DNA from: Rheinheimera sediminis
GTDB taxonomy: Bacteria > Pseudomonadota > Gammaproteobacteria > Enterobacterales > Alteromonadaceae
DNA: 64,000 nucleotides
Direction: 5' to 3'
Assembly (NCBI RefSeq): GCF_004005375.1
Contig: NZ_RZUF01000005.1
Location: 62,001-126,000 of the forward strand
The notes beneath the pieces were generated by a model. That model did not search any database, was not told the DNA's origin, and worked only from the letters and a program-made list of their open reading frames with translations. This document shows, one piece after another, positions 50,199 to 64,000 of the stretch. Positions within the stretch are counted from its first letter, which is position 1. Each line of letters starts with the position of its first letter. The position numbers and the translations under genes are program-made.

Positions 50199-52352
50199 AT
50201 GGATAAGATGCAGCTGGGACCATGGACTTTTACACCAGACGATTACAGCATTCATGACAAGGCTCAACGGATAGAGCTGGAACCTCTGTTATCTAAACTA
50301 CTGCATTATTTTACTGAACATCCCGGCAAAATAATCTCCCGCCAACAGCTTGTCGACGCTATATGGCAGCAAAGTTATGTGGATGACAACGCGATCAACC
50401 GCGCCATATCAGAACTTCGAAAAGCGTTGCAACATCCTGAAGTACCGCAGTCACTGATTAAAACTCACCATCGCAAAGGGTATAGCCTGCAGTTACCGCA
50501 TCAAACAAACATCAACATTGAACAAGTCACTAACGATGGAAGCATTGTCTTAGATCAAGCCACACCATATAGACGACGCTTCCCGCTTTGGTTTATTGCA
50601 CTAACCACTTTGCTACTAGCCACAACAGCAGTCATTTTTTATTTTTTTAACCCAAAGCCAGCTTTACCCCTTGAGAGTTCAAAGCAGGATGACAAACCCC
50701 GGCTAGTCGAAATGGAACTTGTCACCAGACAAAAAGTGACCTGGTTTAAAGGCATTGAATCGCGGCCTTTGTTGTCCCCGGATAAACAACTACTAGCCTA
50801 CAGCCACTCACAACCGGATGGCACTTTGCGAGTCGTAGTACGTAAGTTGGGTATAGGCACAGGCAGCGCTTTGCAAGAAGTTGTGATTGAAGGGAACAAC
50901 AATCTGTATAACATTCAAAACTGGCAACCATTAAGCCGCAATTTGTTAATTCAGGTCATAGGCAAAGATGGCCAGGATTGTAAATACCAGAATTATGATT
51001 TCAGCAAGTACCCGCAGTATCAGGTCACCACATTAACCTCTTGCTCAGGCCTTAACTTTGGCACAGCACAACAAAGTGCAGATGGACAATGGCTGTATTA
51101 CAGTAAAAGCAATGGCGGCTTGTATTCCAGCAATGCCCTGCTGGCTGAAAATCTGGCTAGTGGCACAGTACAAACCTTGCTAGCGGCTCCCTCAGCTGGT
51201 CTTGGCGTTACTATAGTGGCTTTGTCTGCGGATGGCAGCAAACTGGCCTATATTCTGATGCCAGAATCCAATAAACCCGATATCTACATCTATGAGCCCA
51301 GCACCAGAGAACATACCAGAGTAGCGAGCTTACCCTTTCCTTTGATTCTATTAGGTTTAGATTGGAGCATTGATCAGGCTAGTCTCATTTTACCTGGTGG
51401 CGATGGCATATTGCAGCTGAATATAACAGATAAAAGTAAGAGCCTGATTAAGCTTCCTGAGGGCGTAACTCTGGGAGAGTTGACTATGCTCGCAGAAGAT
51501 CAAGCTTATATATCTGGCTTTACCGCAGGCAACGCCACCCAAAATTCTATGCAACTGATTAAAATAGAGCGGCCTTTTGATGCTACAGAGCGGAAAATCA
51601 CCTTGCTTGATGATGTTGCAGGAAGTGCTGCAGATCTGGCTGTCTCACCAGTAGATAGCAGCAGCTATGCATTCTCCGCCAATTGGACAGGTAGCTGGCA
51701 GCTATGGCTGCATAAAAAGGGGCAGAATGTGCAACTGACAGAGTTTGCTCCGGACGATCAGCGTCTTGGCGGTATCAACTGGTCGGGTGATGGTCGCTAT
51801 ATTGCTTTCCATAAACAAGGTAACTTGCATTTATATGACAACCAGCGCCAGCAATTAATCAACAAACTGGAAAGTAATGACGTTGGCCAGGCGGTATGGC
51901 TGCCTGATAACAGCGGTCTGGTACTGACCAGACTCCAAGACAACAGCCAGAATCTGTGGCAATTGGATTTAATCAGCAACGAGTTAACGCAATTGACCTT
52001 TTCTGCAGGCACTTTTGCGCAGTTCGATGCTCACGGACAATTGCATTATCACCGTGACGGCAAGTTGATACGTTATATTGATGGTGGAAAAAGTGACATA
52101 GAACTCAAAACATCAAGTGATGCAAACCTGGTAGCTCTTTGGTTATTACAGGGACAGCAACACTATCGTTTCGGCATGTTGGGGCATCTTGAGCGACATA
52201 ATATTGTCACAGGTGAAACACAATTGAGCCAACTGCCTTATCAATTATTAGGCATACATCTGGATCCACATAATCCAGACCAGCTCTATGCAACAGTATT
52301 TGTCACGCCAGAGCTGGCGCTGGAATTTATTCAGTGGAAACACAAGCCCTGA
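50199..52352 (+). CDS. Membrane-anchored winged-helix regulator with beta-propeller sensor (CadC/TolB-like)
   Basis: 717 aa. Cytoplasmic OmpR/CadC-type DNA-binding domain (~1-105): QRIELEPLLSKLLHYFTEHP, IISRQQLVDAIWQQSYVDDN, AINRAISELRKAL, HHRKGYSL. One membrane helix (~129-149, WFIALTTLLLATTAVIFYFF). Periplasmic region with WD40/PD40-like blades (SPDKQLLAYSHS, SADGSKLAYIL, SGDGRYIAFHKQGN). It converges on the peptide/ABC operon downstream and has the same architecture and length as the regulator at 60922, so it probably senses an envelope or extracellular signal for this locus (inference). Confidence 0.9.
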   Translation: MDKMQLGPWTFTPDDYSIHDKAQRIELEPLLSKLLHYFTEHPGKIISRQQLVDAIWQQSYVDDNAINRAISELRKALQHPEVPQSLIKTHHRKGYSLQLPHQTNINIEQVTNDGSIVLDQATPYRRRFPLWFIALTTLLLATTAVIFYFFNPKPALPLESSKQDDKPRLVEMELVTRQKVTWFKGIESRPLLSPDKQLLAYSHSQPDGTLRVVVRKLGIGTGSALQEVVIEGNNNLYNIQNWQPLSRNLLIQVIGKDGQDCKYQNYDFSKYPQYQVTTLTSCSGLNFGTAQQSADGQWLYYSKSNGGLYSSNALLAENLASGTVQTLLAAPSAGLGVTIVALSADGSKLAYILMPESNKPDIYIYEPSTREHTRVASLPFPLILLGLDWSIDQASLILPGGDGILQLNITDKSKSLIKLPEGVTLGELTMLAEDQAYISGFTAGNATQNSMQLIKIERPFDATERKITLLDDVAGSAADLAVSPVDSSSYAFSANWTGSWQLWLHKKGQNVQLTEFAPDDQRLGGINWSGDGRYIAFHKQGNLHLYDNQRQQLINKLESNDVGQAVWLPDNSGLVLTRLQDNSQNLWQLDLISNELTQLTFSAGTFAQFDAHGQLHYHRDGKLIRYIDGGKSDIELKTSSDANLVALWLLQGQQHYRFGMLGHLERHNIVTGETQLSQLPYQLLGIHLDPHNPDQLYATVFVTPELALEFIQWKHKP

Positions 52353-52435: not shown

Positions 52436-52484
52436 TAATGATACCGCGTGACATGCCAGTGTAAAAGCTCTGCATGCGGTATTA
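52436..52484. repeat. Inverted repeat of the TAATGATACCG family
   Basis: Left arm TAATGATACCGCG..ACATGC and right arm GCATGCGGTATTA around a short spacer. It shares TAATGATACCGCG with the units at 38485 and 38548. Its end touches the stop of the ABC permease. May serve as a transcript end between convergent genes. Confidence 0.55.
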
Positions 52485-54890
52485 CTCATTACGCAAAGCT
52501 TTGATCGGATCGCCCAACAACACCCTCCGTAATGGCACAAAGCTACACAACAGAGTGGCAATGGCCAACAGCAACAACACCGCAAAAACCAGCCTCCAAT
52601 CGGCTTGATACATCAGCTCAGGCTGAATCCGGCTTATTCCTGTTACAAAATAAAAGCAAGAAAACCCCAGTAGCAGCGCCCCCGCCAGCGGTTGGACTAG
52701 CTTTAGCAAGTTATCACGCAGCAACTGATGGATACTGGCCCCCATTGCCATCTCTACACCCAACTGATAGCGACGAGCCTGCACCAGATAGCTGACAATA
52801 CCAGCCACTCCAGCCAGCACAGTGAGTAAACTCATCAGTGCCAAGGTGGCCGATAACGCAGCAGCCAAACGGTGGGCCAGTGAAAAATGGGCAAATGCGG
52901 CATTTAACGTGGTCAACTGCTGCAAATCCAGCCTTGGGTCTTGCTGTCTCAACAGCTCCAGCACGGCGGCATCAGTCAGTACAGCTCCAGAGCTTAGTTT
53001 CAGCAAATAACTGTATTCACGACGACCAGTGTTTTCAACCGGGTAAAACACTTCATCAACTTCAAAATCGGGGGCTCCAGGAAAGTTAGTATTGGCAACC
53101 ACACCTATAATCTGCCGCTGAATGCTGCTGTCACTCAAAGCTATGCTTTGCCCCAAAGCGGGTTTTCCGTTCAACCGGGCAATGCGATCAGCCAAGCGCT
53201 GGTTTACGATCACAGGATGATGCTCCAACCCGACCTGCTCAGCGCTAAAGTCCTGCCCCGAAAGCTCTAATCCATACAATTGAAAGTACCCTGGCAACAC
53301 ACCAATTTGTCGTGCTGCAGAGATCACCTCTCCTTGTGTATTACTGATCCTGTCCTGATTGCGTACCCTTGGTACCCTTGGTTCAGAAACAGGCGTCACT
53401 TGTTGCACTTGTGGTAAGGCCGCCAGACTTTGTAATAATGCTCGATGGTAATTTTGTTGCTGCTCACTATTGTCTACATCGGCATAATTCACCGTTAAAG
53501 ACCAAAGATCAGTGGAATTCAATCCGGTTGGACGACTAGCTTCAGACCAGGCCGCTGCAAATACGTGTACAGTTGCCAACAATACCAACAGAGATAATAA
53601 CAACTGCACACCAATTAGACTGTGAGCTGTTCCCTGACGCAGCTGTTTCCCTGCGCCTTTACCACTGCTTTGCAAACTTGCCATTAGCTGCATCTCCCGC
53701 ACTCCGCTGAGCTCAATCCAGCTAAACAGCAATGCAATACCCAACAACACTAAGGCGGTAAGACATAATATAAAACCATCTATCCGCAGCACGCTAAGCC
53801 GCGGTAGTTGCTCTGCAGCAACCTCGATAATCACGCCAAAACTCAGCGATGTTAGCAACAATGCAAAGATGCCTGCGCTGGCTAACAAAGTCGCATTATG
53901 GCGAAACACCTGATAAAACATTTGTTTTTTACTAGCGCCAAAGGCATAGCAGACTGCCAGTGGCTGCAACCGCTTTACGGCTCTGGCCAATTGCATACTA
54001 CATAAATTAACCAAAGCAATCAGAGTGAGTAGTGATACACCGGCCAACAGCATCAATACCAGACGACCAGAATCGCCCTGAATTTGCTGACGTAACGGCA
54101 CTGCTTTGCCGTTATAATCAAACATATGCTGTAAATCCGGATGGCGTTCGGCCGACGCCTGCTTCATTAGTTTCGAGACTTCATTACTAGCTTGTTGCTG
54201 GGTCACACCTGTTTTTAAGCGGCCTAAAGCGGAAAAGTTTGCGTTGTAGCCGTCAATGCCACGAATATTAACTGTCTCATCCATATCCAAAGGTAGCCAG
54301 ATCGCTTGATGAGCTTGATGAAAGCCAGGTAATTCCAACTCCTGCTTAAGTACACCTATTACCGTAAATTGGCGCTGATTGAGCTGAATACTCTGGCCGA
54401 CAATATCACTGCGACCTTGATAATACTGTCGCCATACCGCCTGACTTAGTATCGCCGAGGGTTGCTTATTACCCACCTGTTCCTGCTCATTAAATAGCCG
54501 GCCTAAGAATGGGTCAACTCCCATAACTTCAAAAATATTATGGGCACCCAAAAGCACCTGTACCTCGGGCCGCTGCGGTAAATCTACCAGTTGGTACTCT
54601 GTTTGAAGGCCAAAATATACGGCCATCTGTTCCAGCAACTGGCTTTTTTGCTGCAAATCAAACAATCCCTGAATATGAGTTTGTTGATGCAAGGCTCCCT
54701 GATAATTCAACTCGCCACCTATATAATAAAGTTCAGTATCTTTTTTATAAGGTAGGGGCGCAAAGAAGGTGATGTTAACCAGACTCAACACACTAAAGAG
54801 TAAAGTTAGAGTGAACACCAGGCTCAATACCACAGTGATATAGTATTGCCGGGCATGGTAAATAGTGCGCCAGATCATTTGCCAATTCAT
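52482..54890 (-). CDS. MacB/FtsX-type ABC transporter permease
   Basis: 802 aa. N-terminal helix, a large periplasmic MacB-like core (LYYIGGELNYQG ... LGRLFNEQEQVG), an FtsX helix bundle (~280-400), a second periplasmic core and a second FtsX bundle (GVAGIVSYLVQARRYQLGVE, MAMGASIHQLL), ending PLRRVLLGDPIKALRNE. Mechanotransmission-type permeases like this do not move substrate through the membrane but drive periplasmic export or lipoprotein release. Its start overlaps the ATPase stop by 4 bases. Last gene of the long minus-strand operon. Confidence 0.93.
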   Translation of the reverse strand: MNWQMIWRTIYHARQYYITVVLSLVFTLTLLFSVLSLVNITFFAPLPYKKDTELYYIGGELNYQGALHQQTHIQGLFDLQQKSQLLEQMAVYFGLQTEYQLVDLPQRPEVQVLLGAHNIFEVMGVDPFLGRLFNEQEQVGNKQPSAILSQAVWRQYYQGRSDIVGQSIQLNQRQFTVIGVLKQELELPGFHQAHQAIWLPLDMDETVNIRGIDGYNANFSALGRLKTGVTQQQASNEVSKLMKQASAERHPDLQHMFDYNGKAVPLRQQIQGDSGRLVLMLLAGVSLLTLIALVNLCSMQLARAVKRLQPLAVCYAFGASKKQMFYQVFRHNATLLASAGIFALLLTSLSFGVIIEVAAEQLPRLSVLRIDGFILCLTALVLLGIALLFSWIELSGVREMQLMASLQSSGKGAGKQLRQGTAHSLIGVQLLLSLLVLLATVHVFAAAWSEASRPTGLNSTDLWSLTVNYADVDNSEQQQNYHRALLQSLAALPQVQQVTPVSEPRVPRVRNQDRISNTQGEVISAARQIGVLPGYFQLYGLELSGQDFSAEQVGLEHHPVIVNQRLADRIARLNGKPALGQSIALSDSSIQRQIIGVVANTNFPGAPDFEVDEVFYPVENTGRREYSYLLKLSSGAVLTDAAVLELLRQQDPRLDLQQLTTLNAAFAHFSLAHRLAAALSATLALMSLLTVLAGVAGIVSYLVQARRYQLGVEMAMGASIHQLLRDNLLKLVQPLAGALLLGFSCFYFVTGISRIQPELMYQADWRLVFAVLLLLAIATLLCSFVPLRRVLLGDPIKALRNE

Positions 54891-55588
54891 GCAACCTGCT
54901 CCAGCTGTTCTGCCGAAACTACCTGGCCATCCAATAAATGAATTTGCCTGTGTGCCATAGTGGCATAACGCGGATCATGGGTGACCAGACAAATGGTGGT
55001 TCCCTGAGCATGCAATTCGGCCAGCAAAGCCATCACCGCATCGCCATTTTTTGAGTCAAGGTTACCGGTTGGCTCGTCGACCAGCATAATACCCGAATCA
55101 GCGGCAAGAGCCCGAGCTATGGACACCCTCTGCTGTTGTCCGCCAGACAATTGATTGGGGAAAAGAGCAGCTTTATCAGATAAGCCAACTTTTTCCAGAC
55201 ACTGTAGCGCCCTTGCCTGACGCTGTTTGAGGCTATCCCCCCGATATTTGAGCGGCAAGGCGACATTATCCAGCACAGTGTATTCGTCTATCAGGTTAAA
55301 AGCCTGAAATACAAAACCAATGCGGCGACTACGCATCTGTGCCCGCTGCTCGGCATTCATATCAGAGACCAGTAAACCGTCGATATAATATTCACCGCTA
55401 TCTGCGGTATCAAGTAAACCTAAAATATTCAATAAGGTCGATTTGCCACAACCCGAAGGACCACAAATAGCGACATATTCGCCTTCATGCACACTAAAAC
55501 TAACACCGTTAAGCACTGTTTGCTGCTGCTGACCAGATTGAAAGCTTTTTTTAAGGTGTTTGACTTTAAGTACATCTGTTTTCATCAT
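54887..55588 (-). CDS. MacB/LolD-type ABC transporter ATPase
   Basis: 233 aa. Walker A GPSGCGKST (~43), signature LSGGQQQRVSIARALA (~149), Walker B and catalytic Glu MLVDEPTGNLD (~168), H-loop LVTHD. The sequence NAEQRAQMRSRRIGFVFQAFNLI is typical of the MacB/LolD class. It powers the adjacent FtsX-type permease and starts 8 bases after the MacA-like gene. Confidence 0.95.
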   Translation of the reverse strand: MMKTDVLKVKHLKKSFQSGQQQQTVLNGVSFSVHEGEYVAICGPSGCGKSTLLNILGLLDTADSGEYYIDGLLVSDMNAEQRAQMRSRRIGFVFQAFNLIDEYTVLDNVALPLKYRGDSLKQRQARALQCLEKVGLSDKAALFPNQLSGGQQQRVSIARALAADSGIMLVDEPTGNLDSKNGDAVMALLAELHAQGTTICLVTHDPRYATMAHRQIHLLDGQVVSAEQLEQVA

Positions 55589-55596
55589 TGCAATCC

Positions 55597-56826
55597 TTAT
55601 TGAGTCAATTTTAGTTGCGCAACAGAGTTTTCAATCTGAAGGTCACTGACAATAATACGGTCACCTGGTGCCAGGCCCGATATCACTTCGATTTGCTGAC
55701 CTGAGGCCTTGCCGAACTGCACGGGCACCTTGGTTGCAACTTGAAAAGTATCTACCTTAAATAACTCTATTTCCGTATCCTCAGCCACTCCAACTGGCCG
55801 GTCGACAAAGTTTACCTGACCTCGGCTTTGTCCACGGATCCGGGCATCCACCATCTGCATAGGGCGGATATCAGCACTTAAATTTTCCGGTAATAGAATA
55901 TCTACCTGAACTGCACCATCTGCGACCACCGGATCAATCCGCAATACCTGCCCAGTCACAATGCCATGCCGGGTATCCACTTCGGCACTTGCGCCTGGTT
56001 GTAATAAACGTACTTGCATTTGTGGCACTTTCACTTCAGCGATAAGCGGCGATAAGCTGCCAACCAGTGCCAGTTCTTCGCCAATATTTACACTCTGTCC
56101 CAAACTGACAGGTAAGCGTTGCAACACGCCAGCAATCCCAGCTCGCACCACAAGCAGTTGCTGTTGGTTAGTGGCATTACTAAACTCAGCTTCAGCTTGT
56201 TGAATTTCTTCTTGCAGGATCAGCAAATGTTCCTGATGCACTTCTTGCAAGGTATCAAATTTTTGTTTCTCTAATTGGTAACGCTCTTTCAGTTGCTCGG
56301 CTTTGGCTCTACTGCGTCTGGCATCCATTGCCGAGATAATACCTGCGTCAGCCAGCGGCGCTTCAGCCTCGACTTGTAGCCCAGCAAGTTCAGCTTCAGA
56401 TTTAAATTCGGACAAACGTGAACGCTGATCCAATAGTTCGCGCTGCTGTTCCAATGACAGTTTACGACCGTTGGTTTTTTTATTGTGAACATTGGCCATC
56501 GCCTGTTGCACAGCTATTTCCAGTGTCGGGTTTTTTAACGTCAGAATAATGCTGTCAGGCTCAACGACCGCACCAGGGCGCAACTTAATTTCATCCACAG
56601 TCGCTGCGCTGCTGGCTGTGATCATACGTTGGTTCTGCGACTGCAAACTGCCATAGCCAGTAACTCTTTGGGTAAAGTTGCCGCTTTGTACTGTAGCTAT
56701 GCTGACAGACGACAAACTCATGTATTGCATGCCTCCAGCAAAACCAATACTCCAACCGCTGATTAAAAGCAGTACCGATATCAGCCCAATGGCACTATAA
56801 ACCAGTGTGCTCAGATTTTTTTTCAT
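55597..56826 (-). CDS. MacA-like periplasmic adaptor
   Basis: 409 aa. One N-terminal membrane anchor (VYSAIGLISVLLLISGWSIG), lipoyl half-motif (VTGYGSLQSQNQRMITASSA ... VDEIKLRPGAVVEPD), a long coiled-coil hairpin (~105-225; RELLDQRSRLSEFKSEAEL, QLKERYQLEKQKFDTLQEV), the second lipoyl half (VVRAGIAGVLQRLPVSLGQS) and a C-terminal barrel/MP domain. Joins the FtsX-type ABC pump to an outer-membrane channel; no TolC gene is in the window. It lies 14 bases after the C39-ABC gene, making this the second adaptor in the operon. Confidence 0.92.
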   Translation of the reverse strand: MKKNLSTLVYSAIGLISVLLLISGWSIGFAGGMQYMSLSSVSIATVQSGNFTQRVTGYGSLQSQNQRMITASSAATVDEIKLRPGAVVEPDSIILTLKNPTLEIAVQQAMANVHNKKTNGRKLSLEQQRELLDQRSRLSEFKSEAELAGLQVEAEAPLADAGIISAMDARRSRAKAEQLKERYQLEKQKFDTLQEVHQEHLLILQEEIQQAEAEFSNATNQQQLLVVRAGIAGVLQRLPVSLGQSVNIGEELALVGSLSPLIAEVKVPQMQVRLLQPGASAEVDTRHGIVTGQVLRIDPVVADGAVQVDILLPENLSADIRPMQMVDARIRGQSRGQVNFVDRPVGVAEDTEIELFKVDTFQVATKVPVQFGKASGQQIEVISGLAPGDRIIVSDLQIENSVAQLKLTQ

Positions 56827-56840
56827 AATTCATCCTATCT

Positions 56841-58946
56841 TCATGCTCTTGCCATAGTGGCAATCAACTCGGTTAAATCAATAACCCGATCTGCCGCCGC
56901 AATAGTCTCTTTGCGGTGCGCCACACTGATACGCGTCATGTTTTTTTGTTTCAGGTACTGATTTACACGTTGTTCGCTCACGCTATCAAGATGGCTGGTT
57001 GCTTCATCCAGGAATAAAATTTTGGGTTGGGTATAAAATGCACGAGCCAACAGGATGCGCTGTTTTTGCCCGCCAGATAGCGCACTTCCCAGATCCCCTA
57101 CCTGAGTATGCAAGCCCATGGGCATAGCCTGTATTTCATCCCAGATAGCAGCACCTTTAAGAGCTTCTTTGACTAATTCAAGATGGGGGGAAGGTTCAAA
57201 AAAAGTGATGTTTTCCAGTAAAGAACCGTTGAGCAACTGGTCATTTTGCATCACTGTTGCACAACATTGGCGAAATTGGCGGAACCCTAATGATTTAACA
57301 GGCATGCCATCCAGCAACAAGTCGCCTTGCTGTGGCGGTATTAAGCCAGTCATGATTTTTAACAGCGTCGATTTACCTAAACCTGAGCGCCCAATTATTG
57401 CAACGGACTCACCAGCCTCCACCCGAAAACTGAGCGCCTGATACAGCCAGGGGGTACTGTCGCTGTAACGAAAATGCAGATTTCGCACTTCCAGAGCACC
57501 AATTATCTGCTCTGATTTAAGCGCTACCCTGACTTGGTCCTGTTCCGGCACCTGCATAACGATATCGGACATACGACGCAGATAGGTACCCGCAATCCGA
57601 AAACGGAAGATGTTATCAACTAAAGACTGGGCGCTATCGGCAAATTGCTGGCGGTAGGCCAAATAAGCCAGAAACATGCCCAGGCTAAGCGCTCCTTCAA
57701 TAATAAAAGAGGCACTAATCATCACAATAATCAAATATTCAATTCGGCCAAGTGCGTTTTGGGTAACATCGCTGGCAATGGTTACTTTCTCTCGTTGGAT
57801 ACTGGAGTTTAGTGTATCGGCATAAAGGTTCATCCAACTTGATAAACGGTTATTCTCTTTCGCAAAACTTTTAATCGGCATAATGGCCCGAATAGTTTCA
57901 ATAAAATGACTATTTTCCTTGGCGTGTTTACTAAGCTGCTGCTCCAGGTGCTCATTTTCTTTGTTGGTCAGGAAAAATCTGATCAAATACAGTGCAACCA
58001 GAAAGCAAACCGAAACCAGTGCGAGAGTCTTGTTGTAGTAAAACATGATGGTTAGCGTTGTGATGCTCAATAGTCCATCGACTATAGCCGTAATAAAGCC
58101 TCTGCTAATCATACGCTGAACTTCATTAAATGCTTCGAATCTGGACTTGATATCCCCTACATGGCGACTTTCAAAAAAACTGAGCGGCAAATGCAAAAGA
58201 TGGCGTTGTATATTGGCTTTGACCTGAAAGCTCAGGTTCTTATCCAAATACATTATGGCGGCCGAACGAATAATCTGGGCCAATACAGACAGCATCAACA
58301 CCAATGAAAAACCGATAAAAACAGACCAGAGCATACTGGTTTGGCCTGAGTTAATCCCTTTATCTATAACAACCCGAATGTAATAGGGAGAGAGCAGTAA
58401 TAACCCCTGCAACAACAGCGCAATGACCAGAATTTTTCCGAGTGATGCCCATAGGCCATCCACTTTACCTATAAAGTGGCGCAGCGGTATACGAATCCGT
58501 TCATCTTTGCGGGCAAAATCACTCGATGGGACCAGTTCAATGACTATACCAGTGAAAGATTCAGAGACCTGATTCCAATCCAGATTTAAGCGTCCTTTTG
58601 CCGGATCATGAATAGTGATCCCTTTGCTGTTCACTTTCGCAAGCGTGACGAAGTGATTAAAGTTCCAGTGTAGAATTGCCGGCTTTTTGACTTTTGCCAG
58701 TTGCCCGAGATCAAGTTTCAGTACTCGTGCAGACAGGCCTAATTCATCGGCAATATTGACGATTTGTTTTACCGTAACCCCGTGTAAACCAGCGGGGTAT
58801 TTCTGCCGCATAGCAAGCATATTGGTTTTAAATCCATGGTAGCAAGCCACCATGGCAATACAGGTAATGCCACACTCAGCCACTTCACTTTGCAGATAAA
58901 CTGGTAGTTGCTGGCTTCTGAATTGAATATAATCAGCAATAAGCAT
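56841..58946 (-). CDS. Peptidase (C39)-containing ABC exporter for double-glycine peptides
   Basis: 701 aa, the full bacteriocin-exporter length. The N-terminal C39 protease has catalytic Cys25 (VAECGITCIAMVACYHG), His98 (NFNHFVTLAKV) and Asp114 (HDPAKG), all present, so it should cut leaders after Gly-Gly. The TM domain is ~160-450. The ATPase has Walker A IIGRSGLGKSTLLK (~515), LSGGQKQRILLARAF (~625), Walker B ILFLDEATSHLD (~645). It resembles CvaB/LagD-type exporters. A double-Gly peptide gene (59774-59935) lies two genes upstream, and the adaptor ends 2 bases before its start. Confidence 0.95.
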   Translation of the reverse strand: MLIADYIQFRSQQLPVYLQSEVAECGITCIAMVACYHGFKTNMLAMRQKYPAGLHGVTVKQIVNIADELGLSARVLKLDLGQLAKVKKPAILHWNFNHFVTLAKVNSKGITIHDPAKGRLNLDWNQVSESFTGIVIELVPSSDFARKDERIRIPLRHFIGKVDGLWASLGKILVIALLLQGLLLLSPYYIRVVIDKGINSGQTSMLWSVFIGFSLVLMLSVLAQIIRSAAIMYLDKNLSFQVKANIQRHLLHLPLSFFESRHVGDIKSRFEAFNEVQRMISRGFITAIVDGLLSITTLTIMFYYNKTLALVSVCFLVALYLIRFFLTNKENEHLEQQLSKHAKENSHFIETIRAIMPIKSFAKENNRLSSWMNLYADTLNSSIQREKVTIASDVTQNALGRIEYLIIVMISASFIIEGALSLGMFLAYLAYRQQFADSAQSLVDNIFRFRIAGTYLRRMSDIVMQVPEQDQVRVALKSEQIIGALEVRNLHFRYSDSTPWLYQALSFRVEAGESVAIIGRSGLGKSTLLKIMTGLIPPQQGDLLLDGMPVKSLGFRQFRQCCATVMQNDQLLNGSLLENITFFEPSPHLELVKEALKGAAIWDEIQAMPMGLHTQVGDLGSALSGGQKQRILLARAFYTQPKILFLDEATSHLDSVSEQRVNQYLKQKNMTRISVAHRKETIAAADRVIDLTELIATMARA

Positions 58947-58948
58947 AA

Positions 58949-59653
58949 CTAGCCCTCCTTGATCAGTGCAAAGAAGTTATTACGCTTCACATTGAGCTCA
59001 AGCCGAACGTCTGCGGATGGATGAAGCACGCCAGGCTCATAAGGCAGCTGAAGCTGTATCCCCACATTAATTCTGCCTTGCTGAAAAGGTCCAATCACAG
59101 AGTGAACTTTTCCCCTGGCCCACAGTGACCCGGCGCGCAGATTTACGACTTGCCCAGGTTGTATCTGATCAGGCTTAGTTCCTGTTAACGAGAAAAAAAA
59201 CAAATGGTCTTCATTAATTCGCAATACTTTGGCAATGGTTTGAAAAGCCAGAGCAGTAGAGCCTGAGTTCACCATCGCAAAGTAGGTTCCAGACTCACTG
59301 CTTTTCAACAAATCAACTTGCTCAAGCTGACTTTTAGAATCGAAAGATCGCACTTGTACTATCACTTGCTCACGATTTATTCGACTGCCATCCATATTCA
59401 GATGACGTTCCACAACCACAGGTACAGGAGAAACAATAGGAAAATAGTTTGATTCATGAGCTGCCAGGTTTAATTGTTCGCGACTGACAAAGGGATACAC
59501 CAAAGCGAAAAAAATAAGCAGACCAAAAGCAATGAACATAATGACTATTGCTTTATCCAACAGATGTGACTGCTGAATAACAGATTTACCAAACTCTTGA
59601 GTTTGGTACTGATGCCGCAAAGCCTCTTTCCGAAATAGTTTGAGATAAGACAT
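58949..59653 (-). CDS. Short HlyD-type adaptor lacking the coiled-coil hairpin
   Basis: 234 aa from the ATG at 59653; AGAAGG lies 6 bases before it, and the in-frame ATG at 59656 is too close. Basic N-terminus (YLKLFRKEALRHQYQTQE), one membrane helix (AIVIMFIAFGLLIFFALVYP), then periplasmic beta domains: FPIVSPVPVVVER, ESGTYFAMVNSGSTALAFQT in the place of the lipoyl motif, QIQPGQVVNLRAGSL, barrel ending LELNVKRNNFF. CvaA-type partners of C39 exporters are usually ~400 aa with a long alpha-hairpin; that hairpin is missing here. It is next to the C39 exporter, so it is its likely adaptor. Confidence 0.8.
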   Translation of the reverse strand: MSYLKLFRKEALRHQYQTQEFGKSVIQQSHLLDKAIVIMFIAFGLLIFFALVYPFVSREQLNLAAHESNYFPIVSPVPVVVERHLNMDGSRINREQVIVQVRSFDSKSQLEQVDLLKSSESGTYFAMVNSGSTALAFQTIAKVLRINEDHLFFFSLTGTKPDQIQPGQVVNLRAGSLWARGKVHSVIGPFQQGRINVGIQLQLPYEPGVLHPSADVRLELNVKRNNFFALIKEG

Positions 59654-59796
59654 CATAAGCCTTCTAATGCATGCAATACCGCCACATTTGGACCAATCAT
59701 TGGCGCCATCAGCCATTCGGTGACCCCATCAGACATTGCAACTATCTGAGTACCCAAAGCATTTATGTTGTGACTAAAATTTCGCAGATTCATCAT
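59653..59796 (-). CDS. Overlapping 47-aa ORF, candidate second peptide
   Basis: Found by hand. ATG-ATG at 59796/59793 lies inside the end of the double-Gly peptide gene in another frame, and the stop TGA overlaps the adaptor start (ATGA). This gives a chain of overlaps. The product is MMNLRNFSHNINALG... with a hydrophobic, Met-rich second half containing TEWLMAPMIGPNVAVLHALEGL split by Pro-Met-Ile-Gly. No clear ribosome site, so it would depend on translational coupling. It may be a partner peptide, an immunity-type peptide or just an open frame. Confidence 0.35.
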   Translation of the reverse strand: MMNLRNFSHNINALGTQIVAMSDGVTEWLMAPMIGPNVAVLHALEGL

Positions 59797-59935
59797 TCAG
59801 TTCAATGTAAACATCTTCCGGATTCAGCAAACCACCCACAATCTTATCCAGTTCATCCAAAGCAGTGACTTCAATAAAGCCTTCTGCTGTGATGGTTGCG
59901 GCTAGTGGTTCTTCCAAAGCTATATGATTTTTCAT
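59774..59935 (-). CDS. Double-glycine-leader peptide precursor
   Basis: 53 aa from the ATG at 59935, with a strong ribosome site (GAGGTG, 5 bases away). The leader ends ALDELDKIVGG; relative to the cut it has E-8, L-7, I-4, G-2, G-1, the consensus read by C39 peptidases (ELxxIxGG). The predicted released peptide is the 18-mer LLNPEDVYIELNDESAKF, acidic (five D/E, one K) and without Cys. It could be a bacteriocin/microcin, a signal peptide or a substrate for modification; no modification enzyme is in the operon. The N-terminal leader part (HIALEEPLAATITAEGFIEV) is longer than in most class II bacteriocins. Confidence 0.7.
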   Translation of the reverse strand: MKNHIALEEPLAATITAEGFIEVTALDELDKIVGGLLNPEDVYIELNDESAKF

Positions 59936-60043
59936 GCTGCACCTCATAGACAAATTTGCCAGCCAGACTATGGATGCTAACCACTGGATATCACCATCAC
60001 TGTGCTGTGTTTTTTTTATCACCAAAAAATAACCATAAAAAAA

Positions 60044-60676
60044 CTAAATATTATTCATGTAGTTATGAATGAGTTGTTGCCTGTTTGCGCTACCTGTTTT
60101 TTGCATACTGTTAGTCAGATGAAAATTCACAGTCCGCTCTGTAATACTGAGAATCCGGCTGATTTCCCAAGAGGTTTTTCCATGAGCAGCCCAGTGAACA
60201 CATTCAATCTCACGAGGAGTCAGACGCACCTCGACGTCAGGTTCTGTTTCATTTAACCGTCGATAAGTGTCGTAAACGTAAGTACCTACAATTTGCCAAA
60301 ACCAACCTAGCTTCTCGGCAAACTTTGGCTCTACGTCTTGATTGGTAAACCCCAGAATCAGGCATGCATGATCTGGACGGGAAGTGACAATAGGGATCAG
60401 CAGACTGGCTTGTGGTAAAGCTACTTTGGTCAATTTCTCTGAACCAGACCAGCATGGTTTATAGCAATGCAGACATAGCTGTTTAAGTGCTGCGAAGGTA
60501 AGCTTTTGCTTGACTCCATCTGGCACTGAACCTATATAGGAGGTACTGTCTCGATGAACAATAAAGCAGCACCAGTCTATATGAGGCAGTTCTGAGAATT
60601 GAATCAAATAACGTTCTAACTGAATCAATGTTTCTACCTGATCCAGTTCAGCCAAAGTTTGCTCAAAGAAACTCAT
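60044..60676 (-). CDS. LuxR-type transcriptional regulator
   Basis: 210 aa from the ATG at 60676 with AGGGAGG just upstream (a TTG at 60697 is less likely). The C-terminal LuxR HTH is complete: LTPREIECVHWAAHGKTSWE, ISRILSITERTVNFHLTNSM, QKTGSANRQQ, closest to the SdiA/QscR group. The N-terminal ~140 residues occupy the place of an autoinducer domain (WCCFIVHRDSTSYIGSVPDG ... LLIPIVTSRPDHACLILGF) but I cannot match the usual Trp/Tyr/Asp acyl-homoserine-lactone residues. No luxI is in the window. It precedes the precursor gene by 108 bases, so it likely controls the export operon. Confidence 0.88.
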   Translation of the reverse strand: MSFFEQTLAELDQVETLIQLERYLIQFSELPHIDWCCFIVHRDSTSYIGSVPDGVKQKLTFAALKQLCLHCYKPCWSGSEKLTKVALPQASLLIPIVTSRPDHACLILGFTNQDVEPKFAEKLGWFWQIVGTYVYDTYRRLNETEPDVEVRLTPREIECVHWAAHGKTSWEISRILSITERTVNFHLTNSMQKTGSANRQQLIHNYMNNI

Positions 60677-60693
60677 AGTGCCTCCCTGAACCT

Positions 60694-60822
60694 TCAATCA
60701 ATATCGCAGCTACTGGTCAATTTACACCAGGACAATGGTGGAACAGTTTCACTCTCAGAATTACTCTCAGCCATCAATGCTGAAGGAAATATGAGTACAA
60801 ACGCAATAACAATGACTTTCAT
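60694..60822 (-). CDS. 42-aa Sec-secreted peptide with two cysteines
   Basis: Found by hand. The ATG at 60822 has a strong ribosome site (AAGGGGA, 6 bases away). Signal peptide MKVIVIAFVLIFPSALMA, predicted cut after LMA, then a 24-residue mature peptide: ESNSESETVPPLSW, then CKLTSSCDID. The two Cys, five apart, could form a small disulfide ring. It lies 17 bases before the LuxR-type gene and 99 bases after the winged-helix regulator, all on the same strand. It has no Gly-Gly leader, so it would use Sec rather than the C39 exporter. A plausible signal or effector peptide; function unknown. Confidence 0.6.
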   Translation of the reverse strand: MKVIVIAFVLIFPSALMAESNSESETVPPLSWCKLTSSCDID

Positions 60823-60921
60823 GAAATTCCCCTTTATTAGTAGTGAAGTCAGGGAAATTTTGAATGAGAAACAGCGCGGGGGAAATAACGAGAATCTAAT
60901 TTTACTGTGGTTAATTTATCA

Positions 60922-63063
60922 CTACTTTATAAGGTAAACAGATAAATCAATGCCACTGAGGCTTGTCATGCGTGTCCCTCGGCTGCTGTAAAGCACAAGA
61001 CTCCCATTTTGATTAATCGCAAAACGAGGCCGCATTTTTTCGTAAGGAAAACTGGTTTGCCGAAACTCGCCACTGACAAAATCCAACTGGTTTAACCATG
61101 TTGATACAAAATCAAAATCGCTCCAAATCAAGGTCTGGTTTTTGACGTACCAGCGGCTAATAAATTCGGTGTTAATGCTATATCCGAGAGCACGAACCTG
61201 CCGCAACCCGGTGTCTAACTGATGTAACGCACCGTTTTCAGTCACAGCAATAAAGCCATTGCTGTATTCTCTGGCAGACCTGTAGCCTAACGCGAGTCTT
61301 TTGCTACGCTGACTAACACGGTCAAATTGGTGCAATTCCCAATCTCCGACGATCAATTGGCCAAAATAGACTCTTTGACCATCCGATGAAAACGCAGCCT
61401 GGCTATCCAGAAGACTTTTCGATGAAGATACTATCTCCACAGAACTTTTGGATACATTCACCACCAGAAGTTGCTCTCCCACATGTAATAACAAGACCCC
61501 CTGTTCAGGATGAATATCCAGTAACTCGAGCTTCTTATGGGTGCTAAAAAGAGTTTCTTTATTACCACTGCTTTGATCATACTTCACCAGCATACGTTTA
61601 TTCTGATCACTGACAACGGCATAATATATATGGTCATGTTCGGAATAGCTCATCATGAGCGTTCCACTGGCAGCGTTAACAATCCGTCCTTCGGACAATT
61701 CAGGGGTAAGAATCAGCTCACGAAAAACTGGCTCAACAGCATCTGAATTACGCAATAAATACAATCTGTTATCTGTATTAGCAATTGAGAAATCCGTAAT
61801 CTGATCTTCAGCCTGCTCCAACAAAATCTGCTCGCTGCCCGACGATAAGCTAACGACACTAAGTTGCTGTTCATCCAGTTTCATCAACGAATTACCGTTC
61901 AGCCATTCCAATCGACCAACACGGGCTTGTGTGGCTTTTGAATACACTGTACGCTGCGAGCTTACCTCTTGAATTTCCAACCAATATTCCTGACCACTAC
62001 GCAAAATAGCACTTGCCAGCCACTGACCATCCAGGGAATGTACTGAATGATAAATGTGATCCAGAGCGCTGCTGCGAGCTTGCACTCGTTCTAAAGTATT
62101 TGACTGACTTTGCCAGCGGTATAGCATGGCTGTTCCTTGCTCTGCTTCCATTGCATTAATAAACAACTCTCCTTGTTGTTGACCAGGGCTTACCCGGAAA
62201 ATCATGAAAAAATTGACAAGAGACTGTTCGCTGACAACGCGCTTATTCTCATCGAGCAGTAAAAGATAGACCGAAGAGTTACCCACCACTTCATCGACAA
62301 CAAAAAGTGAGTTGTCATTATTAAATTCCAGCATTGATGGTTGCTGTGCACTGGTAGACAAAAGGTGAATATCTTTGGTTTTGCGGTTTTTCAGATAAAT
62401 TTGCCAAGGTTCACTCTGGTTTAAACGACCAATAAAAGCCAGATATCGCCCATCCGGAGAGACTGTCAGCCCCTTTTTCTCGCCAGCTATGGTCGTAATC
62501 ACCTGACTGGGTAGATGCCAAAGCTCAGAAATATCAGATTCAGTTTTTCCTCTTGGAAAAAAGAACAGTAAGAGAATAACCAAGACACCAAAAACAACAA
62601 AGCCCGCTATAGTGAGGATTTTAGCGGGCTGAAAAGCAATTGGCTCAAACTGTTCCGGCCTTGCGGTATAACCACCCGACACTTCAGCCATACCCGCTAT
62701 CATTGTAGTTGCGATCAACTTCGGATGATCTGGGGTGACAAGGTCCGTATCTTCACTGATATAGCAAATCAACTTATAGCCACGTTTTGATAGCGATTTA
62801 ATGTATTTGGGGTCAGCGACATTAGTATCGTCAAACAGGTTTCTGAGTTTTTTGATTGTTCCTCTGACAGCAGTATCACTGACTACACGACCAGACCAGA
62901 CATGTTGATGCAATTCCTGCAAGCTGATATAACGATCACGATGTAAATACAAGTAAGCAAGCAGCTCCAATACCTGAGGCTCGGCTTCTAACTCTTTTTC
63001 GCCAGAAAACAAAACTTTGCTACTGGTATCGAAAATAAACTCTCCAAGAATAACCTTAGACAT
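60922..63063 (-). CDS. Membrane-anchored winged-helix regulator with beta-propeller sensor
   Basis: 713 aa from the ATG at 63063 (a TTG at 63072 is less likely). CadC/OmpR-type DNA-binding domain ~1-108 (EAEPQVLELLAYLYLHRDRY, SDTAVRGTIKKLRNLFDD, YIKSLSKRGYKLICY), a membrane helix ~146-168 (ILTIAGFVVFGVLVILLLFF), and a periplasmic region with PD40-like blades (VSPDGRYLAFIGRLNQSEPW, FSSDGQRVYFGQLIVGDWEL). First gene of the apparent peptide/export operon. Its architecture parallels the regulator at 50199. Confidence 0.9.
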   Translation of the reverse strand: MSKVILGEFIFDTSSKVLFSGEKELEAEPQVLELLAYLYLHRDRYISLQELHQHVWSGRVVSDTAVRGTIKKLRNLFDDTNVADPKYIKSLSKRGYKLICYISEDTDLVTPDHPKLIATTMIAGMAEVSGGYTARPEQFEPIAFQPAKILTIAGFVVFGVLVILLLFFFPRGKTESDISELWHLPSQVITTIAGEKKGLTVSPDGRYLAFIGRLNQSEPWQIYLKNRKTKDIHLLSTSAQQPSMLEFNNDNSLFVVDEVVGNSSVYLLLLDENKRVVSEQSLVNFFMIFRVSPGQQQGELFINAMEAEQGTAMLYRWQSQSNTLERVQARSSALDHIYHSVHSLDGQWLASAILRSGQEYWLEIQEVSSQRTVYSKATQARVGRLEWLNGNSLMKLDEQQLSVVSLSSGSEQILLEQAEDQITDFSIANTDNRLYLLRNSDAVEPVFRELILTPELSEGRIVNAASGTLMMSYSEHDHIYYAVVSDQNKRMLVKYDQSSGNKETLFSTHKKLELLDIHPEQGVLLLHVGEQLLVVNVSKSSVEIVSSSKSLLDSQAAFSSDGQRVYFGQLIVGDWELHQFDRVSQRSKRLALGYRSAREYSNGFIAVTENGALHQLDTGLRQVRALGYSINTEFISRWYVKNQTLIWSDFDFVSTWLNQLDFVSGEFRQTSFPYEKMRPRFAINQNGSLVLYSSRGTRMTSLSGIDLSVYLIK

Positions 63064-63249: not shown

Positions 63250-64000
63250 CTATTTTCTGGCTGAATGCTGATTAACCTGCGCACACTGCCGTAACCAATC
63301 CGATTGAGCAACAAGCATTTGTTGAATGGTTTCTTTATAACGGTAGGCATGTCGTTCATTATTCAATAATAACAACTTGGCAGGTACGTGATGGGCTTTT
63401 AATGCCTGAAACATCATTTCAGATTGTAATGGAGCTGTACCTGGGTTTTCATCAGCCAAACCGTGGATCAGTAATACAGGGGTTTTTATCTTGTCCGCAT
63501 GGAAAAATGGGGATAGTTGCTGATATAAATCAGGTACCTGCCACAAGGTTCGTTTTTCTCCCTGAAAACCCAAGGGGGTCAGCGATCTATTGTAAGCACC
63601 ACTTCGTGCTATTGCACAGCGAAAATCTGTGCGTTCTGTCAGCAAGCTTAAAACACTAAAAGCACCGTAAGAGTGTCCCATCAATACCAGCCGGGTAGTA
63701 TCAATACGGCCGGTCTGTTCCAGGGTTTTAATCAAAGACGACATGTTAAGTTGCTGCTGACTCATAAAAGTATCATTTGGTTCTTGACCGTTCTGGCGGA
63801 CTATAGGGATCTGACTGGCATCCACAACCGCATAGCCATCTAATAGTGCAATCTCAGGTCCTTGCGGATCAAGAAGCTTAAATCCAAGGTGTTGTGATGG
63901 TTTTACTTGTTGCTGATGACTATGATACTCGCGAGGGTAAAGCCAAATCACTGCGGGTAACAACTCATTACTCTGCCTTTTCGGCAGATACAGCTGGCTG
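63250..64000 (-). CDS. S9-family (prolyl-oligopeptidase-like) serine peptidase, C-terminal part
   Basis: The frame is open to the right edge (…LYLPKRQSNELLPAVIWLYP), so the 5' end is outside; 249 residues are seen. Alpha/beta-hydrolase catalytic triad: Ser in LVLMGHSYGAFSVLSLL, Asp in LLIHGLADENPGTAPLQ, His in NNERHAYRYK. Gly-His-Ser-Tyr-Gly-Ala and the ending pattern resemble the glutamyl-peptidase-like S9 group. By family it cleaves short peptides after Pro or acidic residues. A role in degrading the acidic peptide made nearby is only speculation. Confidence 0.9.
   Translation of the reverse strand, partial: SQLYLPKRQSNELLPAVIWLYPREYHSHQQQVKPSQHLGFKLLDPQGPEIALLDGYAVVDASQIPIVRQNGQEPNDTFMSQQQLNMSSLIKTLEQTGRIDTTRLVLMGHSYGAFSVLSLLTERTDFRCAIARSGAYNRSLTPLGFQGEKRTLWQVPDLYQQLSPFFHADKIKTPVLLIHGLADENPGTAPLQSEMMFQALKAHHVPAKLLLLNNERHAYRYKETIQQMLVAQSDWLRQCAQVNQHSARK

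What the first reader, a model, noticed from the sequence alone, without database searches (positions are those of the whole stretch)
52482..63063. Candidate undescribed peptide production, export and sensing operon
Ten genes on one strand with short gaps or overlaps: membrane one-component regulator, 42-aa secreted Cys peptide, LuxR-type regulator, 53-aa double-Gly precursor, 47-aa overlapping ORF, hairpin-less HlyD adaptor, intact C39-ABC exporter, MacA-like adaptor, MacB-type ATPase and permease. Two export machines, two kinds of small secreted product and two regulators in one unit is not a layout I know as a named system. The seen parts are the motifs and spacing; the joint function is inference.
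Basis: partly seen in the sequence, partly recalled or inferred. Interest (0 to 1): 0.8.

Follow-up and report, generated by a model that had tools for sequence, protein, structure and literature searches.

The report
Peptide factory with its own peptide switch
In a Rheinheimera bacterium this stretch is most of a gene cluster that makes, trims and exports small peptides, and it is run by a three-gene control cassette carrying a tiny exported peptide with two cysteines, which may be an unrecognised bacterial signal.

Summary
The operon is real and conserved in four other Rheinheimera genomes and in Alishewanella. Nine of the ten listed genes are supported; the 47-aa ORF is not. The unit continues past the window edge on the same strand: an S9 prolyl oligopeptidase, a second double-Gly precursor with two Cys and a radical SAM enzyme. 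Much the same set recurs, rearranged, in Pseudoalteromonas and, as far as fetched, Colwellia. Best reading: a radical-SAM RiPP cluster with two precursors, a C39 exporter with a hairpin-less adaptor, a prolyl peptidase and a MacA/ATPase/ADOP-type pump. The surprising part is the control cassette: CadC-type membrane regulator, small Sec-type peptide ending in C-x(3-6)-C, LuxR with a quorum-sensing fold. A rule (made after the first examples) finds the peptide in 28 of 29 such loci, in 2 of 182 control gaps, and in both fresh loci (counted among the 29). It is under purifying selection (omega about 0.2). The cassette occurs in seven named genera beside different peptide clusters (lanthipeptide, ATP-grasp, radical SAM). 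I infer that the peptide is a ligand, possibly a pheromone, of the CadC propeller; this is untested. Ten literature searches listed no paper on it.

The parts
60922..63063 (-). CadC/ToxR-type membrane one-component regulator: N-terminal winged helix, TM segment (read from sequence), periplasmic TolB/WD40-like beta-propeller (PD40)
   Evidence: Pfam Trans_reg_C and PD40; profile of 23 homologues matches CadC and ToxR wHTH and TolB/WD40 propellers in the PDB
60694..60822 (-). 42-aa Sec-type small peptide with C-terminal C-x5-C (WCKLTSSCDID): candidate signal/ligand of the cassette
   Evidence: Rule met in 22 of 23 CadC-LuxR gaps vs 2 of 182 control gaps and in 6 of 6 further trio loci, two of them from genomes not seen before; omega 0.21
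60044..60676 (-). LuxR-type regulator with quorum-sensing (RhlR/QscR/SdiA) fold but no Autoind_bind hit
   Evidence: Pfam GerE, no Autoind_bind at E up to 1; AlphaFold model pLDDT 84.9, Foldseek E about 1e-10 to RhlR/QscR/SdiA
60012..60044 (-). candidate operator in front of the precursor gene: GTTTT/GTTAT/GTGAT boxes 11 bp apart (the first starts at the last base of the luxR stop codon), followed by AAAAAA
   Evidence: 13 of 15 consensus positions, shuffled mean 9.0; 12 in L105 but 9 in L106; GGTGATAAAAAA also lies between CadC and MacA in L083/L084 (sequence printed); one match at up to 1 mismatch in the window, chance mean 0.58. Suggestive only; consensus chosen by eye
59774..59935 (-). 53-aa double-Gly precursor (leader ..LDELDKIVGG, core LLNPEDVYIELNDESAKF)
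   Evidence: omega 0.11; homologues with a ..G(F/L)IE(V/I)T.L..LD..VGG leader in Alishewanella, Pseudoalteromonas and Colwellia, Pro at core position 4 in 14 of 14 cores tabulated, near-copies included
59653..59796 (-).
   Evidence: omega 0.81, no counterpart in L105 and L106
58949..59653 (-). 234-aa hairpin-less periplasmic adaptor
   Evidence: no Pfam family reaching its cutoff; weak HlyD profile match E 0.16; AlphaFold model best matches BesA, then MexA, ZneB and others including MacA
56841..58946 (-). C39 peptidase-containing ABC exporter
   Evidence: Peptidase_C39, ABC_membrane, ABC_tran; 67-68% identical to L115, L117, L120, L135, 41-42% to L108, L114, L123
55597..56826 (-). MacA-like periplasmic adaptor
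   Evidence: HlyD_3, HlyD_D23; RND_mfp 94.7 of 94.9 bits
54887..55588 (-). MacB/DarD-type ATPase
   Evidence: ABC_tran; MacB ATPase 242.7 bits, DarD 231.3 bits, both below cutoffs
52482..54890 (-). ADOP-type duplicated MacB/FtsX permease
   Evidence: two MacB_PCD and two FtsX stretches; TIGR03434 over its whole length, below cutoff
63250..64000 (-). 3' part of S9 prolyl oligopeptidase gene (whole gene G000:C46:125250-127688, 812 aa, hydrophobic N-terminus); second GG precursor (C46:128060-128230) and radical SAM gene (C46:128407-130056) follow beyond the window
   Evidence: Pfam Peptidase_S9 and Radical_SAM on the genome's own proteins; S9 full-length in exactly the 5 of 22 Rheinheimera genomes with the operon

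Best explanation
A radical-SAM RiPP cluster with its own control cassette. Shown by sequence: two double-Gly precursors, a radical SAM enzyme, a C39 exporter with a hairpin-less adaptor, an S9 prolyl oligopeptidase, a MacA/ATPase/ADOP-type pump, and a CadC-type regulator, small exported CxnC peptide and LuxR. Inferred working: the radical SAM enzyme modifies the Cys-containing precursor; the C39 exporter cuts both precursors after GG and, because its adaptor lacks the hairpin used to reach TolC, delivers them to the periplasm; the S9 peptidase trims them after the conserved Pro (GG-xxxP or GG-xxP); MacA/ATPase/ADOP then pumps the product out through TolC or protects the producer. The small peptide is exported by Sec, closes a disulfide loop and binds the periplasmic propeller of CadC, which then switches on the peptide-luxR pair and the precursor operon. 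LuxR adds a second, unknown input.
For: Gene set and order in relatives. S9 full-length in exactly the 5 of 22 Rheinheimera genomes with the operon; in the 4 other operon genomes searched (G524, G560, G802, G815) the best S9 match lies in the locus. Short adaptor in 15 of 395 family genomes, 14 of them LuxR-positive against 32 of 395 overall, Fisher p 3e-16. Peptide family: 22 of 23 gaps vs 2 of 182, 11 of 2300 resampled gaps, 6 of 6 further loci; omega 0.20-0.21. None within 1.5 kb after CadC in 12 fetched CadC loci without LuxR, one with only 167 bp downstream. Precedents: GG cut by exporter then a second protease, and Pro-cutting FlaP (PMC10885120, passages).
Against: No transcript, peptide or binding data. 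The peptide rule was fixed after seeing examples; only 2 fresh trio loci tested it, one nearly identical to a known one. L077 has a strong CadC and a truncated LuxR match but no such peptide. The operator repeats are weak in the window's own CadC-peptide gap. The window's radical SAM is only about 30% identical to those of L105, L106 and the other genera, so the modification may differ. Thalassomonas has the trio and a short adaptor without C39 or MacA among the labelled genes; L107 has trio plus pump without C39; G560 has no labelled ADOP between ATPase and S9. In G624 adaptor and LuxR lie about 3 Mb apart. The peptide is missing where LuxR is missing, so it may serve LuxR rather than CadC.
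Confidence: 0.55

Rival explanations
1. The small CxnC peptide is not a diffusible signal but a periplasmic partner that holds CadC off or stabilises it, as ToxS does for ToxR (recalled comparison); the real signal is envelope stress or the exported RiPP.
For: Peptide lies between the membrane regulator and the second regulator in the trio loci; CadC/ToxR-type wHTH.
Against: Peptides are only 42-70 aa with fast-changing tails (36-43% identity where C39, MacA, ATPase and ADOP keep 76-93%); three tandem copies in G053 fit a dose-dependent product better than a fixed subunit.
Confidence: 0.3
2. The small peptide is itself a secreted effector (for example a bacteriocin-like product) co-expressed with LuxR, and not a regulator ligand.
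For: Small secreted Cys peptides next to peptide-export genes are commonly products (general knowledge); sequence variation between species.
Against: The adjacent RiPP genes change between loci (lanthipeptide, ATP-grasp, radical SAM, pump only) while the peptide stays between the two regulators; it has a Sec-type N-terminus, not a GG leader.
Confidence: 0.15
3. MacA/ATPase/ADOP is an immunity or general envelope-defence pump under CadC control and plays no part in export; the C39 exporter works with TolC on its own.
For: CadC + MacA + ATPase + ADOP without peptides in G438 and G492; pump without C39 in L107.
Against: In the 16 loci where hairpin-less adaptor and C39 adjoin, MacA follows (L135 adaptor), while six trio loci with a full-length HlyD show no MacA/ADOP in the fetched stretch (L090, L108, L109, L110, L114, L116).
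Confidence: 0.35
4. Separate neighbouring transcription units that only happen to lie together.
For: About 100-bp gaps before the small peptide and before the precursor; halves occur apart.
Against: Synteny across genera with regulators moved to a divergent position yet retained; co-occurrence statistics.
Confidence: 0.05

Closest known systems
Radical SAM RiPP clusters of the PapB / TIGR04463 (Cys-rich) kind
   Same: radical SAM enzyme near a GG precursor with Cys and acidic residues, C39 exporter
   Different: all NCBIfam models score far below cutoffs; two precursors, S9 peptidase, ADOP-type pump and CadC/peptide/LuxR cassette
Class II microcin export (CvaA/CvaB type)
   Same: double-Gly leader, C39-ABC exporter plus HlyD-like adaptor (family features recalled)
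   Different: adaptor lacks the hairpin; extra MacA/ATPase/ADOP pump; radical SAM gene; short acidic core
Darobactin/dynobactin operons (DarA-E)
   Same: peptide precursor, radical SAM, adaptor, MacB-type ATPase and permease (operon make-up recalled)
   Different: DarB, DarC, DarD models match far below cutoffs; darobactin operons have no C39 exporter as I recall
BesA adaptor of Borrelia
   Same: hairpin-less fold, best structural match (PMC3807786 highlights)
   Different: BesA belongs to an RND-type efflux system (PMC2279261, title in the listing); this one is encoded next to a C39-ABC exporter
CadC / ToxR membrane one-component regulators
   Same: wHTH, TM, periplasmic domain
   Different: periplasmic part is a TolB/WD40-like propeller; neighbours are a CxnC peptide and a LuxR
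Quorum-sensing LuxR proteins (RhlR, QscR, SdiA, CviR)
   Same: HTH and overall fold
   Different: no Autoind_bind hit, protein shorter (210 aa); genomic partners are CadC and a peptide
Gram-positive GG-peptide pheromone loci (ComC/ComAB, PCAT loci)
   Same: small exported peptide, PCAT, sensor and regulator in one locus (recalled; PMC7018657 abstract start seen)
   Different: signal candidate uses a Sec-type signal peptide and CxnC loop; sensor is a one-component membrane protein

Membership tests
rSAM RiPP biosynthetic cluster | radical SAM enzyme with CxxxCxxC adjacent to a short precursor | tested here: met
   C46:128407-130056 with CNLRCPYC and GGEP, precursor C46:128060-128230; Pfam Radical_SAM 42.1 bits, cutoff 29.5
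PapB-type ranthipeptide / TIGR04463 maturase | NCBIfam curated cutoff | tested here: not met
   118.8 of 340 and 123.8 of 525 bits for orthologue L102
PCAT / double-Gly export | C39 domain plus GG leader | tested here: met
   Peptidase_C39 106 bits; LDELDKIVGG leader, omega 0.11
PCAT / double-Gly export | cleavage and export of the precursor | not testable with these tools
   needs biochemistry
Class II microcin | full-length CvaA-type adaptor (recalled) | tested here: not met
   234-aa adaptor with BesA-like, hairpin-less model
Darobactin export DarBCD | NCBIfam cutoffs for DarB, DarC, DarD | tested here: not met
   25.5/700, 60.8/450, 231.3/375 bits
ADOP duplicated permease | TIGR03434 cutoff | tested here: not met
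   413.1 of 622.3 bits although aligned over 7-802
CadC/ToxR one-component regulator | OmpR-type wHTH, TM, periplasmic sensor | tested here: met
   the TM is read from sequence
AHL-responsive LuxR receptor | autoinducer-binding domain | tested here: inconclusive
   fold similar to LasR LBD (TM by target about 0.6) but no Pfam Autoind_bind at E up to 1
Peptide quorum sensing | exported peptide encoded with its receptor | tested here: inconclusive
   co-location by rule in 28 of 29 trio loci, the 29th by eye; binding and density dependence untested
Peptide quorum sensing | peptide in medium induces the regulon | not testable with these tools
   needs experiment

The most novel reading that the evidence does not exclude
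A ribosomal peptide pheromone system of Gram-negative bacteria: a Sec-exported peptide with a C-x(3-6)-C disulfide loop is sensed by the periplasmic propeller of a CadC-type one-component regulator, together with a LuxR whose fold is that of AHL receptors, as a portable switch for many kinds of RiPP cluster across Alteromonadales-type bacteria; in this cluster the product is exported in two steps, C39 exporter into the periplasm, Pro-specific trimming, then a MacAB-like pump.
Probability: 0.3. Interest if true: 0.9.

Novelty: new variant of a known kind. Interest (0 to 1): 0.7.

Why it matters
Peptide pheromones are textbook Gram-positive signals; convincing ribosomal peptide signalling circuits in Gram-negative bacteria are few (my general knowledge, not searched exhaustively). 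A small, conserved, experimentally tractable cassette found beside lanthipeptide, ATP-grasp and radical SAM clusters would give a handle for switching on silent peptide clusters in marine bacteria. The pairing of a hairpin-less adaptor with a MacAB-like pump makes two-step peptide export directly testable.

Tried and rejected
orf47 as a second product: rejected (omega 0.81; no counterpart in L105, L106). Membership in darobactin export and PapB families: cutoffs not met; microcin: adaptor differs. Sigma-70 and terminator scan: 18 promoter-like sites vs 19.3 expected, 15 terminator-like vs 11.2, so no transcript limits were drawn. Operator search: the consensus GTTAT was picked by eye from the same sequences; over 22 regions the 11-bp repeat is best of 14 spacings (mean 10.82 vs 8.77-9.73; shuffles at 11 bp 8.86 sd 0.18), but Pseudoalteromonas loci drive it; the window's own peptide gap scores 10 only with boxes reaching into CadC, L102, L105 and L106 score 9, 8, 9, and the stretches upstream of CadC and the divergent regions (8-11) are mostly near their shuffled means. 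Kept as suggestive. Loop class against CadC tree: 4 changes vs 11.2 shuffled, but near-copies inflate this. A sister LuxR clade (weak CadC, 78-118 bits, 180-220-aa ORF between in most) lacks the peptide by the rules: L130, L133, L136-L140, L142, L145-L147, L152, and L228, L231, L240 from fresh genomes; however one of the two control hits is a 41-aa ORF just upstream of LuxR in L147, not reported for its relative L146. Borderline loci left out of the 29: L127 (Sessilibacter, CadC 360 bits, CX2C peptide), L128 (peptide with CX6C, no CadC called), L077 (LuxR truncated, no peptide). Rows dropped: 12 of 79 loci had no LuxR gene of 90 aa or more and others lacked a strong CadC upstream; only loci with CadC over 600 bits of my own profile (built partly from these loci) and adjacent LuxR entered the 23 gaps. 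Adaptor loci G533 and G624 were not inspected.
Full report
What is there. On the minus strand from 63,063 to 52,482 lie a CadC-type regulator, a 42-aa exported Cys peptide, a LuxR, a 53-aa double-Gly precursor, a 234-aa adaptor, a C39-ABC exporter, a MacA-like adaptor, a MacB-type ATPase and an 802-aa duplicated permease. The 47-aa ORF is not supported. The genes from the adaptor onward are spaced by 14 bases or less or overlap.

The unit is larger. Directly upstream on the same strand is an S9 prolyl oligopeptidase gene that leaves the window at 64,000 (C46:125250-127688), then a 56-aa double-Gly precursor ending ..DEISGG-TNPEQADDSECIGFACGSYKESQQVE (C46:128060-128230), then a 549-aa radical SAM protein (C46:128407-130056) (Pfam on both proteins). 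Of 22 Rheinheimera genomes, the 5 that carry the operon, and only these, have the full-length S9 gene at E up to 1e-50; one other has a partial match, E 1e-57. Alishewanella aestuarii and a Rheinheimera MAG (L105) have a similar layout with a shorter radical SAM enzyme and their own Cys-containing second precursor.

Distant relatives. In Pseudoalteromonas (L117-L121, L135, G802, G815, G560) and Colwellia (L115) the trio CadC / small peptide / LuxR is divergent from an operon: homologue of the 53-aa precursor, in most an unknown gene (286-376 aa; none called in L115 and L120), a second precursor with Cys, radical SAM, short adaptor, C39 exporter, MacA, ATPase where the stretch reaches, and, where fetched, ADOP (G815, G802; none labelled in G560) and S9 peptidase (G815, G802, G560). 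The second precursor was read in the seven loci. The C39 exporters of L115, L117, L120 and L135 are 67-68% identical to the window's; those of L108, L114 and L123 41-42%. The 14 cores of the 53-aa family that I tabulated, near-copies included, all have Pro at position 4 after GG. The radical SAM of L105 and L106 is 54-64% identical to those of L115, L117, L120 and L135, whereas that of the window's subgroup is only about 30%: a replacement is likely.

The control cassette. I searched the LuxR profile in 395 genomes of the family (32 positive at 1e-40), in 108 genomes of the Pseudoalteromonas group (38 positive at 1e-55) and in genome contigs (best 80 of 214 relatives kept, 78 loci). Where a CadC homologue over 600 bits lies directly upstream of an intact LuxR, a small Sec-type ORF with C-x(3-6)-C near its end lies between. 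With one rule this holds in 22 of 23 gaps, in 2 of 182 other co-directional gaps and in 11 of 2300 first-order resampled gaps, and in six further loci (L076, L078, L095, L100; L229, L232): 28 of 29. The one miss, L122, has such a peptide with extra Cys in the signal part. L100 has three tandem copies. The rule was fixed after the first examples, and the CadC profile was built partly from these loci; the only fresh test is 2 of 2 loci (L229, L232), and L232 is nearly L119. The peptide genes are under purifying selection (omega 0.21 and 0.20). In 12 fetched CadC loci without LuxR (L079, L080, L083-L086, L088, L091-L093, L096, L098) no copy of CadC is followed within 1.5 kb by such a peptide (L080 and one copy in L093 have under 200 bp downstream). 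L077 has a strong CadC, a truncated LuxR match and no peptide.

The cassette is portable. It occurs in loci named Rheinheimera, Alishewanella, Arsukibacterium, Pseudoalteromonas, Colwellia, Thalassomonas and Thalassotalea. Genes beside it include class III lanthipeptide synthetase + C39 + HlyD (L108-L110, L116; Pfam on L108 and L116), ATP-grasp enzymes with GG precursors, plus radical SAM in two (L112-L114), ABC pumps (L107, L122), the present radical SAM cluster, and in Thalassomonas a short adaptor and GCS2/AstE-like enzymes. Peptide loop length follows the CadC tree (4 changes, shuffled mean 11.2), though close relatives inflate this. Against Alishewanella and L105, C39, MacA, ATPase and ADOP keep 76-93% identity, the adaptor 68-71%, LuxR 64-68%, the CadC periplasmic part 52-54% and the peptide 36-43%: compatible with ligand-receptor divergence, and equally with relaxed constraint.

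Structure. LuxR models as a quorum-sensing LuxR (RhlR, QscR, SdiA) but Pfam finds no autoinducer domain. CadC has the CadC/ToxR wHTH and a TolB/WD40-like propeller by profile. The short adaptor's best match is BesA, described as lacking the alpha-hairpin (PMC3807786, highlights in the listing). Where short adaptor and C39 adjoin (16 loci: window, L102-L106, L115, L117-L121, L135, L248, L250, L252), MacA follows; in six trio loci with full-length HlyD no MacA/ADOP was seen in the fetched stretch. In Thalassomonas the short adaptor stands without C39 or MacA among the labelled genes. Over 395 genomes the short adaptor occurs in 15, 14 of them LuxR-positive (Fisher p 3e-16), but in G624 the two are about 3 Mb apart.

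Mechanism. Most likely this is a RiPP factory: modification of the Cys precursor, GG cleavage with export into the periplasm, Pro-specific trimming, expulsion by the MacAB-like pump, under a CadC/peptide/LuxR switch. Two-step proteolysis after PCAT cleavage (LicP removing NDVNPE) and an S9 enzyme cutting after Pro (FlaP) are described in PMC10885120 (passages). Possible operators, GTTAT repeats every 11 bp, precede the small peptide in several loci and the precursor in the window, but the window's own peptide gap has no clear copy. Every functional step is inference.

Novelty. Ten searches of the open-access library (one search was for BesA) listed no paper whose title or abstract start describes this cassette or cluster; I saw listings, and passages of one review only, and most subscription journals are not held. 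As a biosynthetic cluster it is a new variant of a known kind; the regulatory peptide family would be a new kind if the ligand role is proven.

Noticed in passing
window 50199-52352 (+): Second CadC-type regulator with PD40 propeller, convergent with the permease gene; other genes follow the permease in L105/L106.
   Followed up: partly
L100 (G053), 13418, 13196, 12982 (-): Three tandem copies of the exported CxnC peptide (tail CILLPQLC) between CadC and LuxR.
   Followed up: partly
L117 4977-6095 (-), L119 4831-5961 (-): 372-376-aa protein without Pfam hit between the two GG precursors of the Pseudoalteromonas cluster; could be a second modifying enzyme.
   Followed up: partly
L105 2425-3066 (+): DsbA-like gene between the Cys precursor and the radical SAM gene.
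   Followed up: no
L113 10061-12890; L114 10168-12023: Arrays of short GG precursors (for example VSGGFICGGLCIAGAAFAAGALFG) with ATP-grasp genes, and radical SAM in L113, downstream of the same cassette.
   Followed up: no
L133, L136-L140, L142, L145-L147, L152: Sister LuxR clade in Pseudoalteromonas with a weakly similar CadC and mostly a 180-220-aa ORF where the CxnC peptide would be; several lie beside C39, LanKC-like or radical SAM genes.
   Followed up: partly
L249 9359-12952 (+): 1197-aa protein joining ABC2 membrane and M1 peptidase domains near the Thalassomonas cassette.
   Followed up: no
L083 12330-12471, L084 3282-3421: CadC followed directly by MacA/ATPase/ADOP with GGTGATAAAAAA in the gap, as before the precursor in the window.
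   Followed up: partly
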